A stretch of 39,665 nt of DNA from Leptolyngbya sp. Prado105 (GTDB lineage Bacteria > Cyanobacteriota > Cyanobacteriia > Leptolyngbyales > Leptolyngbyaceae). The position numbers were made by a program, and so were the translations under genes. The notes under the pieces are model-generated. The model ran no database searches, had not been told where the DNA came from, and was given only the letters and a program-made list of their open reading frames with translations. The stretch lies in contig JALOOO010000015.1 of NCBI GenBank assembly GCA_025454375.1, forward strand, positions 1 to 39,665, in the 5' to 3' direction. Below are positions 36,762 to 39,665 of the stretch, piece after piece (positions within the stretch are counted from its first letter, which is position 1; each line of letters opens with the position of its first letter).

Positions 36762-36838
36762 ATTTTTTCTGTCGGTTGTATAAGCTGCCAGAAGCTTCTA
36801 TGCTCAAGCGCATCAACTTACCTGGTGAATGCGTAAAG

Positions 36839-36887
36839 CCCCCGCGTTTCAACCGGGGGATATAAGCGCGTTGCCGGATTTATCCGG
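36839..36887 (-). repeat. Hairpins at the IS left end, resembling a tnpB right end/guide-RNA scaffold
   Basis: CCCCCG (36839-36844) pairs with CGGGGG (36854-36859); CCGGAT (36874-36879) pairs with ATCCGG (36882-36887). Read on the minus strand, the order is a small CCGG hairpin, AACGCGCTTATAT, then the C/G-rich hairpin. This is the order I associate with the 3' ends of cyanobacterial tnpB genes (omega RNA scaffold). That resemblance is from memory. It directly follows the truncated tnpA frame. Confidence 0.5.
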
Positions 36888-36898
36888 TCTTGATGGTT

Positions 36899-37267
36899 CT
36901 AGTTTAACCGTGATGTCTTGCCAGTGGTGTCAAACATATATGAATGAGTCCACAGGCTAGGCAATTTGAGCAGTTCTGGAAACTCTTGCCGCATGAATCG
37001 GGATGACCGACCTTTGAAAGCTTTAACCACTTGAGCGATGGAATGATGAGGGTCATACTCTACTAACAAATGAAGATGATCAGGCGCTACCTCAATCGCT
37101 TTGATCATCCATTTTTTTTCGTTAGCAACACCCTGAAAAATCTCAATGCAGCGAAGCTTTAAGTCTTCTCGGTTTCGGAATATTGCCCGTCGCCTGCAAG
37201 GTATCCAGACTAGGTGAACGGTGGCAAGTCCTAGACAGTGATTGTAATGCTTGTATGGCTTATTCAT
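36899..37267 (-). pseudogene. tnpA: IS200-family TnpA transposase, truncated before the catalytic tyrosine
   Basis: The protein has 122 aa. The Y1 HUH transposase core is clear: VHLVWIPCRRR, the metal-binding HUH motif His64-Leu-His66 in PDHLHLLVEY, FKGRSSRFMRQEFP and LWTHSYMFDTTGK. The frame stops right after TSRLN. Family members continue through a last helix that carries the nucleophilic tyrosine (Tyr127 in IS608, whose His64/His66 numbering matches this protein). Without it the protein cannot cut DNA, so it is very likely inactive. The start at 37267 is divergent to tnpB. Confidence 0.8.
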
Positions 37268-37312: not shown

Positions 37313-37593
37313 ATGAAGACATTGAAATTCAAGCTATATCAAAGCAGTCGAAATAAACACCTCAAACGCAGTATCAATGCTGCCGGGGTGATTTATAACC
37401 ATTGCATTGCGCTTCACAAACGGTACTACCGGATGTGGGGTAAGCACTTGAACTGCAATAAGCTTCAGAGTCACATTGCCAAATTGAGAAAGCGTAAAGC
37501 ATTCTGGCAACAGGTCGGATCTCAAGCGGTACAGGATATCTGCCAGCGAATCGAGAAAGCCTATCAACTGTTCTTTAAGCATCACAAGAAAGG
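37313..37593 (+). CDS. tnpB: TnpB (OrfB, RNA-guided nuclease family), 5' exon interrupted by a group II intron
   Basis: The 94-codon N-terminal piece begins MKTLKFKLYQSSRNKHL, followed by AAGVIYNHCIALHKRYYR, LQSHIAKLRK, QAVQDICQRIEKAYQLFFKHHKKG. This is the helical N-terminal part of TnpB. The RuvC and zinc-ribbon parts are missing because the frame runs into the intron at 37594 and stops at 37622-37624. The ATG at 37313 follows an AGAGG site; the open frame upstream overlaps tnpA and is rejected. If the intron splices, the downstream exon beyond the window could complete the protein. Confidence 0.82.
37582..37593 (+). other. Intron-binding sites IBS2 and IBS1 in the tnpB exon
   Basis: IBS1 is GAAAGG (37588-37593), the last six exon bases, and pairs with EBS1 CCTTTT at 37848-37853 (five Watson-Crick pairs plus one G-T). 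IBS2 TCACA (37582-37586) pairs with TGTGA at 37787-37791. Their adjacency to each other and to the splice site is as expected. Confidence 0.75.
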
Positions 37594-37786
37594 GTGCGAT
37601 TCGTTGAAGTATGAATCACGGTGAAAACCCGTACATAACACTTCCAGCCTGACAGCAGATCACTGTCATTAAAAGGCTGAACTTGAGTGAAGCTGGGAAC
37701 AGGGCGCAATCAGACATCGGTTATGAGATGACACTGGCGCTAATGGGGTGTTCCTATGGTGAAACAGAGCCTATAAAAGCGACCCA

Positions 37787-37853
37787 TGTGAAAGCAGGGC
37801 ATAACACAAAAACCCCTGACTTCATTGGAGATAATCCCGCCGCATTTCCTTTT
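37787..37853 (+). other. Exon-binding sites EBS2 and EBS1 in intron domain I
   Basis: EBS2 is TGTGA (37787-37791). EBS1 is CCTTTT (37848-37853), in the loop closed by CCGC (37838-37841 region) and GCGG. Both are complementary to the contiguous exon bases 37582-37593. The spacing and order (EBS2 before EBS1) are those of group II introns. Confidence 0.7.
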
Positions 37854-38064
37854 AATAGCGGTAAGAGTCTAGGGATTCCAATGGTCGAATTGGCTACACC
37901 TAACGGAACTAACAATCTAATCGAAGGAACGAATAAAAACGAAATGGGGGTCAAGAGGCTGTCGAGCCTCAAGTAGGGCAGACGAGCGCCGGAACTCCCA
38001 CATCTCGGGTAGGACAGACCGTAATTGGTCTGAGGTGTTCAGAAAACACAAACCGGAGAAGAGT

Positions 38065-39576
38065 ATGTTTAGACACAGCAGCAATGCTAGTGAAACCTGG
38101 AAAAACCTACCCTGGAAGAAATTCCAGAAAGATTTATTCCGCCTTCAAAAGCGAGTGTTCAAAGCAATTCAAGCTGGAGACAAGCGAAAAGCTATGTCCC
38201 TACAGAGGTTGATACTCAAATCAACCGCAGCTAGGATGCTGGCAATTCGCCAGGTAACGCAGCTAAACGCTGGAAAAAGGACGGCTGGTATAGATGGTAA
38301 AGCCTCACTCAGCCATGAGGAAAGGCTCAACCTGAGTGAAGAAACCAGAACCAGAAGTAGCAACTGGAAACACCAGAAACTACGGGAAATCCCCATACCT
38401 AAGAAAGACGGGACAACCCGCTTCTTAAAAGTGCCAACCATCGGGGATAGAGCATGGCAATGTCTTGTCAAACTAGCCCTAGAGCCAGCACACGAAGCAA
38501 CCTTCCACGCCAGAAGTTACGGATTTAGAACAGGCAGATCGGCACACAACGCCCAAAAACACCTGTTCGACAATCTACACTCCAGGGTCAATGGAATAGA
38601 AAAACGGGTCATAGAACTCGACATCGAAAAGTGCTTCGACAGGATCTCTCACAAATCCATAATGGAGCGACTCATTGCCCCTACAGGCATAAAACTCGGA
38701 ATATTCCGATGTCTCAAAGCAGGAGTCAACCCAGAATTTCCTGAACAAGGAACCCCGCAAGGGGGAGTTGTGAGTCCCCTACTAGCTAACATTGCACTCA
38801 ACGGCATAGAAGAAATCCACAACTCCGTTCGATACGCGGACGACATGGTGATCATCCTAAAGCCAAAAGATGATGCAATAACAATACTTGAGCAAATCTA
38901 CCAATTTTTAGCAGAAAGAGGGATGAAGGTCAGTGAAAAGAAAACCAAGCTAACCGCTACGAAAGATGGATTTGATTTCCTCGGTTGGCACTTCAAAGTG
39001 CAAAACAACGGGAAGTTTAGATGCGTTCCATCAGTGGACAATTACAAAGCTTTCCGCCAGAAAGTAAAAAACATCGTCAACAACTCGAATATTGGTGCTA
39101 CGACAAAGGCAGAGAAATTAGCCCCGGTAGTTAGAGGATGGAGAAACTACCACCGCTACTGCAAAATGAGTGGTTCACGCTTCTCGCTGTACCACACCCA
39201 AAACAGAGCGTTCAAGGTATTTAATAAGGAATCGGGACAGGACTACTACTCCAGTAAGAAATTACTGGAAAAAGCGTTCCCCCCCGTACCGTACTCCGAA
39301 AATAAACACATCAACGTCAAAGGAAATAAATCACCCTATGACGGAGATACCGCCTACTGGAGCAAGCGAAATAGCAAACTCTACTACGGCGAAACCTCTA
39401 AAGCCCTCATAAGGCAAAACCATAAATGTGCTTCCTGTGGACTGAAATTCATCGGTGAGGAAAGGATTAACCTACACCACATCGACGGAAACCACGCCAA
39501 CTGGAAGAAAAGTAATCTAGAAGCAATTCACGAGAGTTGCCATGATTACAAACACATGAGCAAAAGCGAAAGCTAA
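38065..39576 (+). CDS. ltrA: Group II intron-encoded reverse transcriptase/maturase with HNH endonuclease domain
   Basis: The protein has 503 aa from the ATG at 38065, preceded by GGAGAAG; a GTG at 38035 is also in frame. The RT domain has KRTAGIDGK (RT0/1), REIPIPKKDGTTR, YGFRTGRSAHNA, IELDIEKCFD, TPQGGVVSPLLANIAL and the active-site YADD (257-260). The region between motifs 4 and 5 is short, as in the chloroplast-like class. The maturase X domain (about 310-400) has VVRGWRNYHRYC. The C-terminal HNH domain has CASCG (455-459), LHHIDG (470-475) and a final HESCH. It helps the intron splice, cuts the bottom DNA strand and copies the intron into DNA. Confidence 0.95.
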   Translation: MFRHSSNASETWKNLPWKKFQKDLFRLQKRVFKAIQAGDKRKAMSLQRLILKSTAARMLAIRQVTQLNAGKRTAGIDGKASLSHEERLNLSEETRTRSSNWKHQKLREIPIPKKDGTTRFLKVPTIGDRAWQCLVKLALEPAHEATFHARSYGFRTGRSAHNAQKHLFDNLHSRVNGIEKRVIELDIEKCFDRISHKSIMERLIAPTGIKLGIFRCLKAGVNPEFPEQGTPQGGVVSPLLANIALNGIEEIHNSVRYADDMVIILKPKDDAITILEQIYQFLAERGMKVSEKKTKLTATKDGFDFLGWHFKVQNNGKFRCVPSVDNYKAFRQKVKNIVNNSNIGATTKAEKLAPVVRGWRNYHRYCKMSGSRFSLYHTQNRAFKVFNKESGQDYYSSKKLLEKAFPPVPYSENKHINVKGNKSPYDGDTAYWSKRNSKLYYGETSKALIRQNHKCASCGLKFIGEERINLHHIDGNHANWKKSNLEAIHESCHDYKHMSKSES

Positions 39577-39585
39577 GAACATCGG

Positions 39586-39619
39586 GAGCCGGATGCACCG
39601 AAAGGGGCACGTCCGGATC
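39586..39619 (+). ncRNA. Group II intron domain V
   Basis: The 34-nt hairpin has the exact family length. It opens GAGCCGGA (catalytic AGC triad at 39587-39589), has a GAAA tetraloop, a two-base CG bulge on the 3' side and closes TCCGGATC. The third pair is G against A where G-U is usual. It forms the catalytic metal centre of the ribozyme. Confidence 0.92.
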
Positions 39620-39665
39620 TAACAGAGAGGGGCGAGGCATAATAGCCTCCCTCGACTCTACCAGT
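39620..39665 (+). ncRNA. Group II intron domain VI and 3' splice-site region
   Basis: AGAG...GAGGC pairs with GCCTC...CTCT around loop ATAATA. An unpaired A in CTCGACTCT is the likely branch point for lariat formation. The window ends 4-8 bases after the stem, so the last one to four bases could already be the 3' exon. Confidence 0.65.

What the first reader, a model, noticed from the sequence alone, without database searches (positions are those of the whole stretch)
37582..39665. Group II intron nested in tnpB with readable EBS/IBS pairings
The intron begins with GTGCG after codon 93 and two bases of tnpB. IBS1 GAAAGG pairs with EBS1 CCTTTT, and IBS2 TCACA pairs with EBS2 TGTGA, so the insertion point is fixed by base pairing rather than by homology guesswork. 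An RNA-guided nuclease gene has been invaded by a self-splicing retroelement that carries its own HNH nuclease. If splicing is efficient, TnpB expression would depend on the maturase, coupling the two elements. Introns hiding in other mobile elements are known as a strategy; this specific pairing deserves a check.
Basis: partly seen in the sequence, partly recalled or inferred. Interest (0 to 1): 0.72.

Follow-up and report, generated by a model that had tools for sequence, protein, structure and literature searches.

The report
Group II intron inside tnpB
A group II intron, a self-copying RNA element, sits inside the gene for the RNA-guided nuclease TnpB of a cyanobacterial insertion sequence; it is real and well placed, but introns of this kind in elements of this kind were already known.

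Summary
Confirmed. A group II intron with an RT-maturase protein and an HNH-like tail occupies 37594-39662 inside tnpB of an IS200/IS605 element, within a glycine codon (KK-GG|A-V). Exon-1 matches in relatives fix the 5' border: 18 of 22 end there. EBS1 and EBS2 are right by covariation (46 of 67 perfect own IBS1 pairs, mismatched 3.6%; 47 of 65 for IBS2, mismatched 12.6%). EBS3 is 37890; it and host reading frames move the 3' border one base to 39662. The last three bases, AGT, fit intronless tnpB; the contig ends there, so exon 2 is inferred. The same intron (0 of 91 differences) sits at the same site in a second tnpB differing at 36 of 281 exon bases: recent homing is likeliest. Splicing, and TnpB dependence on the maturase, are untested. 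Closest published case: three F4 introns of Thermosynechococcus elongatus at one site in ISEL1, an IS200-family element (PMC2882425, passages); in the genome I take to be that one, the site is the tnpB start. New member of a known kind.

The parts
36829..36898 (.). left end of the IS200/IS605 element, with hairpin GCCCCCGCG...CGGGGG
   Evidence: similarity to intronless relatives G221 (L037) and G058 (L133) begins at 36829 and 36831; exact border not proven
36899..37267 (-). tnpA, IS200-like Y1 transposase, 122 aa
   Evidence: Pfam PF01797 101.8 bits; NCBIfam NF033573 111 bits, cut-off 55
37313..37593 (+). tnpB exon 1 (93 codons plus GG of the glycine codon)
   Evidence: NCBIfam TnpB models E 8e-11 and 2e-9, both below the curated whole-protein cut-offs, as a fragment would be; no Pfam family at E 0.001 (on 37313-37582); 93% protein identity to TnpB of G004
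37582..37586 (+). IBS2 TCACA
   Evidence: pairs 5/5 with EBS2
37588..37593 (+). IBS1 GAAAGG
   Evidence: pairs 6/6 with EBS1
37594..39662 (+). group II intron, 2069 nt, GTGCG...CTACC
37787..37791 (+). EBS2 TGTGA
   Evidence: covariation with IBS2, 47 of 65 introns
37848..37853 (+). EBS1 CCTTTT, in a predicted hairpin loop
   Evidence: covariation with IBS1, 46 of 67 introns; hairpin
37890..37890 (+). EBS3 (U)
   Evidence: covaries with the first exon-2 base, 64 of 74 introns
38065..39576 (+). intron-encoded protein: RT, maturase domain, HNH-like C-terminus; 503 aa from ATG (a GTG start 10 codons upstream at 38035 is possible)
   Evidence: Pfam RVT_1 128 bits, RVT_N 103, GIIM 39; HNH 19.3 bits, just under its cut-off of 21.4; best match among solved structures 6me0 chain C
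39584..39662 (+). domains V and VI; candidate branch-point A at 39655
   Evidence: RF00029 at 39584-39661; fold; branch A assigned from the usual distance to the 3' end (recalled), not tested
39663..39665 (+). first three bases of tnpB exon 2 (AGT); the contig ends here
   Evidence: 14 of the 20 fetched intronless tnpB loci that can be read past the site have AGT after the same GG (my count from the listing; a 21st, L128, ends at the site)

Best explanation
A mobile group IIB intron carrying an RT-maturase protein with an HNH-like tail has homed into tnpB of an IS605-type element, between bases 2 and 3 of glycine codon 94. Mechanism (inferred from what is established for such introns): the spliced lariat with its protein reads the tnpB target strand by EBS1-IBS1, EBS2-IBS2 and EBS3-IBS3, reverse-splices in, the HNH domain cuts the other strand and the RT copies the intron. 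Shown here: the intron, its three exon-pairing sites, its borders, and an identical 5' end at the same site in a second, diverged tnpB of the same genome. Inferred: splicing restores ...KKGV...; without splicing, translation of tnpB stops 10 codons into the intron. The guide-RNA region at the far 3' end of tnpB (recalled from other TnpB systems) and the divergent tnpA would not need splicing, so only the TnpB protein would depend on it.
For: Rfam domain V-VI match; IEP domains; second copy, 36 of 281 exon differences against 0 of 91 intron differences, probability 4e-6 if both had diverged alike; of 22 exon-1 matches elsewhere, 18 end at the border; EBS1, EBS2, EBS3 covariation; border ...ACC| keeps host frames open for a mean of 74 codons against 17 and 24 for one-base shifts, longest in 18 of 28; AGT after the intron, as in 14 of 20 readable empty sites; the exact pattern AARGG|GTGCGATTCGTTG occurs twice in 388 genomes, both times in these two tnpB copies; exon 1 conserved as protein between the two copies, dN/dS 0.05; three copies without the intron or internal stops in same-genus G004.
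Against: Exon 2 is not contiguous in either copy: C15 ends 3 nt after the intron and C350 ends 91 nt into it. The body of exon 2 was not found in the assembly (93% complete); only two contig-end tnpB 3' fragments (C136, C286) and one internally deleted element (C219) were, and none can be tied to these copies. The 3' end is CC, not the consensus AY. TIGR04416 (283.1 bits, cut-off 300) and HNH (19.3, cut-off 21.4) fall short of their curated scores. In 10 of 28 tested introns another border kept the frame open longer, and 10 of 74 lack the EBS3 pair. No transcript data.
Confidence: 0.9

Rival explanations
1. The intron sits in a dead tnpB remnant: exon 2 is missing or degenerate, so splicing yields no TnpB. 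Internally deleted copies of such elements exist (C219 here; two copies in G070).
For: exon 2 body absent from the assembly; deleted derivatives
Against: AGT fits intronless tnpB; two tnpB 3' ends lie at contig ends, as expected of an unresolved repeat; exon 1 open in both copies with dN/dS 0.05, though that record may predate the insertion
Confidence: 0.2
2. One insertion only: the intron entered one tnpB and the IS then transposed with it, or gene conversion spread it, rather than two homing events.
For: same site in both copies; gene conversion cannot be told from retrohoming with 91 bases
Against: exon 1 differs at 36 of 281 sites (dS 0.82) and the intron at 0 of 91; the region with tnpA and the left end of the window element has no match in the 1500 bases upstream of the C350 copy (L002)
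Confidence: 0.08
3. Assembly chimera joining tnpB to an unrelated intron.
For: draft genome of 383 contigs; both copies run to contig ends
Against: two contigs with different tnpB alleles show the identical junction; EBS1, EBS2 and EBS3 all fit this exon
Confidence: 0.02

Closest known systems
Thermosynechococcus elongatus F4 group II introns in ISEL1 (IS200 family), Mohr et al. 2010, PMC2882425 (passages seen)
   Same: cyanobacterial introns, whose closest relative the paper gives as a CL/IIB1 intron, three of them at one conserved site of an IS200-family element. In G070, which I take to be T. elongatus from its 28 RF00029 matches (the paper counts 28 introns), three introns share the 5' flank GTGAGGCGTGGA at a tnpB start and one runs on into a near full-length TnpB match
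   Different: 838 and 850 nt in the two that I measured, too short for such a protein; inserted at codon 2 (start codon my reading) of another tnpB, with another target sequence; two of the three continue into a TnpB C-terminus only, as in internally deleted elements
RmInt1 in ISRm2011-2 of Sinorhizobium meliloti, PMC4238363 (abstract and section 11 seen)
   Same: mobile group II intron in a transposase gene of an insertion sequence; splicing needed for the host gene
   Different: bacterial class D, another insertion sequence, the transposase itself and not tnpB
IStrons, group I intron plus IS element, PMC4227781 (search listing and passages seen); PMC3073962 (passages) describes an IS605-like element in the intron
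   Same: self-splicing intron joined to an IS605-like element
   Different: group I ribozyme, with the IS carried by the intron; here a group II retroelement lies inside tnpB
Maturase reverse transcriptase of PDB 6me0 (that it is the T. elongatus T.el4h protein is recalled)
   Same: best match among solved structures, E 3.4e-66 over query residues 9-365
   Different: the match does not cover the C-terminal part with the HNH-like stretch

Membership tests
group II intron | domains V and VI | tested here: met
   RF00029 50.9 bits, gathering 40, model 1-77 of 77
group II intron | 5' GUGYG | tested here: met
   GTGCG at 37594, identical in the second copy
group II intron | 3' AY (a consensus; PMC7923331 calls an intron with other ends a IIB intron, passage) | tested here: inconclusive
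   EBS3 covariation and host frames place the end at ...ACC; of 80 distinct tails 73 are in register, and those 73 end in C
group II intron | self-splicing through a lariat | not testable with these tools
   sequence only
class IIB | EBS1-IBS1, EBS2-IBS2 and single-base EBS3-IBS3 | tested here: met
chloroplast-like (CL) IEP | RT and maturase domains | tested here: met
   RVT_1, RVT_N, GIIM above their cut-offs; TIGR04416 283.1 bits, below its cut-off of 300
chloroplast-like (CL) IEP | HNH endonuclease domain | tested here: inconclusive
   PF01844 E 0.0013, 19.3 bits against a cut-off of 21.4
chloroplast-like (CL) IEP | place in the CL clade (length would suit CL2B, given as shortened and cyanobacterial in PMC8919778, passages) | not tested
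   no IEP tree was built; the subclass is a guess
IS200/IS605 element, IS605 layout | Y1 tnpA divergent from tnpB | tested here: met
   divergent partner ORF also in intronless G221
RNA-guided nuclease TnpB | TnpB homology of the interrupted gene | tested here: met
   exon 1 93% identical to G004 TnpB; the latter scores 226.6 on NF040570 (cut-off 100) and 234.5 on NF038281 (cut-off 425, not reached) and matches TnpB 8bf8 at E 1e-37
RNA-guided nuclease TnpB | RuvC active site and zinc ribbon in exon 2 of this copy | not testable with these tools
   exon 2 body not found in the assembly

The most novel reading that the evidence does not exclude
The intron has specialised on this tnpB family: both 5' copies found in the genome are occupied and no intronless copy was found (draft, 93% complete), so TnpB protein, but not its transposase or guide RNA, has come under maturase control. 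The intron would then throttle the RNA-guided nuclease while gaining from it, because TnpB-driven repair of vacated sites would recopy the intron along with the IS.
Probability: 0.15. Interest if true: 0.6.

Novelty: new member of a known kind. Interest (0 to 1): 0.36.

Why it matters
It is a clean case, by sequence, of a retroelement using a TnpB gene as a homing site, with occupied and empty alleles in one genus. With the introns of G070 (taken as T. elongatus) and three other cyanobacterial tnpB insertions found here, it suggests that this happens repeatedly and at different tnpB positions. It would allow a direct test of whether an intron can set the level of an RNA-guided nuclease without touching its guide RNA.

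Tried and rejected
Looked for exon 2 in the same genome with DNA, protein and the intron 3' end: only 3' fragments elsewhere. Considered C306 and C314, which hold TnpB 3' parts, as the missing half: C306 is another TnpB, 31% identical and broken into two frames; C314 holds 64 codons at a contig end, and searches did not return it. Plasmids: 42 records match, none over 80% of the query; I saw 20 of the 42 rows, whose features are mostly reverse transcriptases, and opened none. Viral contigs: one relative, not followed up. A claim of enrichment in tnpB was dropped: 3 of 74 other introns lie in tnpB (ten query proteins, nine of them TnpB), but survival bias and relatedness were not modelled; a fourth, L111, has a weak TnpB match (E 3e-4) about 280 bases beyond its junction and was not counted. 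No structure prediction, covariance model or IEP tree was run. In print: I found no paper reporting a group II intron in a gene called tnpB, in nine searches. Most listed papers were not opened: of the 20 I saw passages of three (PMC7923331, PMC4227781, PMC12558985). The held library lacks most subscription journals. The ISEL1 case is, by my reading of G070, the same thing under another name.

Full report
What is there. The window is the whole contig G000:C15 of a draft cyanobacterial genome of 383 contigs. Its genus-mate G004 carries a 325,675-bp replicon that matches plasmid AP017309.1 of Leptolyngbya sp. NIES-3755 in length and in place of match, so the host is probably a Leptolyngbya relative (inference). 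At its right end lies an IS200/IS605 element: a left end near 36829, a Y1 transposase gene on the minus strand (36899-37267), and tnpB on the plus strand from 37313. tnpB is open for 93 codons and two bases and is then cut by a group II intron that ends three bases before the contig does.

The intron. Rfam finds domains V and VI at 39584-39661. The intron protein has RT and maturase domains and an HNH-like C-terminus; its best match among solved structures is chain C of 6me0, a maturase reverse transcriptase. The NCBI group II RT model (283.1 bits, cut-off 300) and the HNH domain (19.3, cut-off 21.4) do not reach their curated scores.

The 5' border. In 291 genomes, this one included, exon 1 matches 23 places outside this genome (my count; the tool scored only a few candidates per genome, so copies are missed: G004 has three and one here). 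One, G079, ends because its contig ends and is dropped. Of the other 22, 18 end at query base 281 or 282, which is the exon border; four end at 276, 287, 269 and 156; none goes more than six bases past the border. Six short intron matches begin nearby, five at 281-282 and one at 277. Of 21 intronless loci fetched, 20 can be read past the site, and 14 of these have AGT next. G004 has three copies matching over all 374 query residues without a stop; one search reads one as 383 aa.

Exon pairing. From the loci and the window I extracted 85 intron rows; 78 remained after keeping one per locus with at least 30 bases upstream, 75 after removing repeats. For EBS1, 73 had a usable loop and 67 loops were distinct: 46 pair 6/6 with their own exon, 16 pair 5, 3 pair 4 and 2 pair 3, while 3.6% of mismatched combinations reach 6/6. 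For EBS2, 47 of 65 pair 5/5 and 12.6% of mismatched ones do. On its own, the 6/6 match would be weaker evidence: the window IBS1 also pairs 6/6 with 5 of the other 66 loops.

The 3' border. Taking the end as ...ACC, the next base covaries with window position 37890: 64 of 74 Watson-Crick, 39.6 expected; the next best column exceeds expectation by 7.8. The extraction pattern demanded a final C; a search without that demand gave 80 distinct tails, 73 in register, and those 73 end in C. For 28 introns with at least 300 bases on either side and an upstream frame open for at least 100 codons, the border ACC| leaves a mean of 74 codons open downstream, against 17 and 24 for borders one base earlier or later; it is the longest in 18 of 28. 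Some of the other ten may lie at a gene's end, and the longest open frame need not be the gene. The intron is therefore 37594-39662 and tnpB resumes with AGT, giving GGA-GT.. = Gly-Val, as in intronless TnpB. This departs from the AY consensus for 3' ends.

A second copy. Contig C350 ends in the same tnpB-intron junction. The exons differ at 36 of 281 bases (dS 0.82, dN/dS 0.05), the 91 shared intron bases at none. Its IBS2 reads TCATA, which still pairs 5/5 by a G-U pair. In 388 genomes the exact junction pattern AARGG|GTGCGATTCGTTG occurs only at these two places; a sister site with other letters would be missed. This is what recent homing into a dispersed target predicts. Mohr et al. reason in the same way about identical inner introns in diverged outer introns (PMC2882425, passage).

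What is missing. The body of exon 2 was not found in the assembly. Two contigs, C136 and C286, end within the last 29 codons of such a tnpB, and C219 holds an internally deleted element. Two left and two right contig ends fit a repeat that the assembler could not resolve, but the halves cannot be matched. The step from AGT to a whole TnpB is inference.

How common. Among the 74 other introns, three lie in tnpB by comparison with nine TnpB queries: L108 and L091 with the frame running through, L114 with a broken downstream part. L044 and L117 lie in the N-terminus of what reads like another group II intron protein, that is, twintrons (judged by eye). In G070, taken as T. elongatus by its 28 RF00029 matches, three introns share the 5' flank GTGAGGCGTGGA; one continues into a TnpB match of 370 aligned residues from codon 2, the other two into a TnpB C-terminus, as in deleted copies. 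This fits the published statement that three F4 introns sit at a conserved site in ISEL1, an IS200-family element (PMC2882425, passage); the passages that I saw do not name tnpB.

Mechanism and meaning. Homing by reverse splicing with EBS pairing is established for such introns; here the anatomy is shown and the reaction is not. Unspliced, tnpB would stop ten codons into the intron. Whether splicing is efficient is open: for RmInt1 in its insertion sequence, less than 1% of exons are correctly spliced in vivo, and the authors propose that this limits the IS (PMC4238363, section 11). The simplest reading is a retroelement that uses a dispersed, dispensable gene as a safe site. Control of an RNA-guided nuclease by the maturase is possible and untested.

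Noticed in passing
G000:C219:14838-14988 (L142, about 1460-1650): Internally deleted relative of the element: what looks like a left end is joined to the last 38 or so codons of tnpB and the right end, so it may keep a guide-RNA region without a nuclease gene.
   Followed up: partly
L108, L091, L114: Related group II introns inserted in other tnpB genes, in Calothrix, Dolichospermum and Phormidium contigs.
   Followed up: partly
L044 and L117: The closest named relative of the window intron protein (L044, 86% identity) and L117 appear to sit inside the N-terminus of another group II intron protein (twintrons).
   Followed up: no
L019, L053, L085, L051, L030: Several family members lie 0-2 codons before a stop of the upstream frame, which might be a way to avoid harm.
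   Followed up: no
3' ends of the related introns (80 distinct tails): This cyanobacterial intron family ends in ...ACC or similar with a final C, and EBS3 pairs with the following base, unlike the AY consensus.
   Followed up: yes
G070 (L187, L188): Two introns with the shared 5' flank continue into the tnpB 3' end, as if the middle of tnpB had been deleted.
   Followed up: partly
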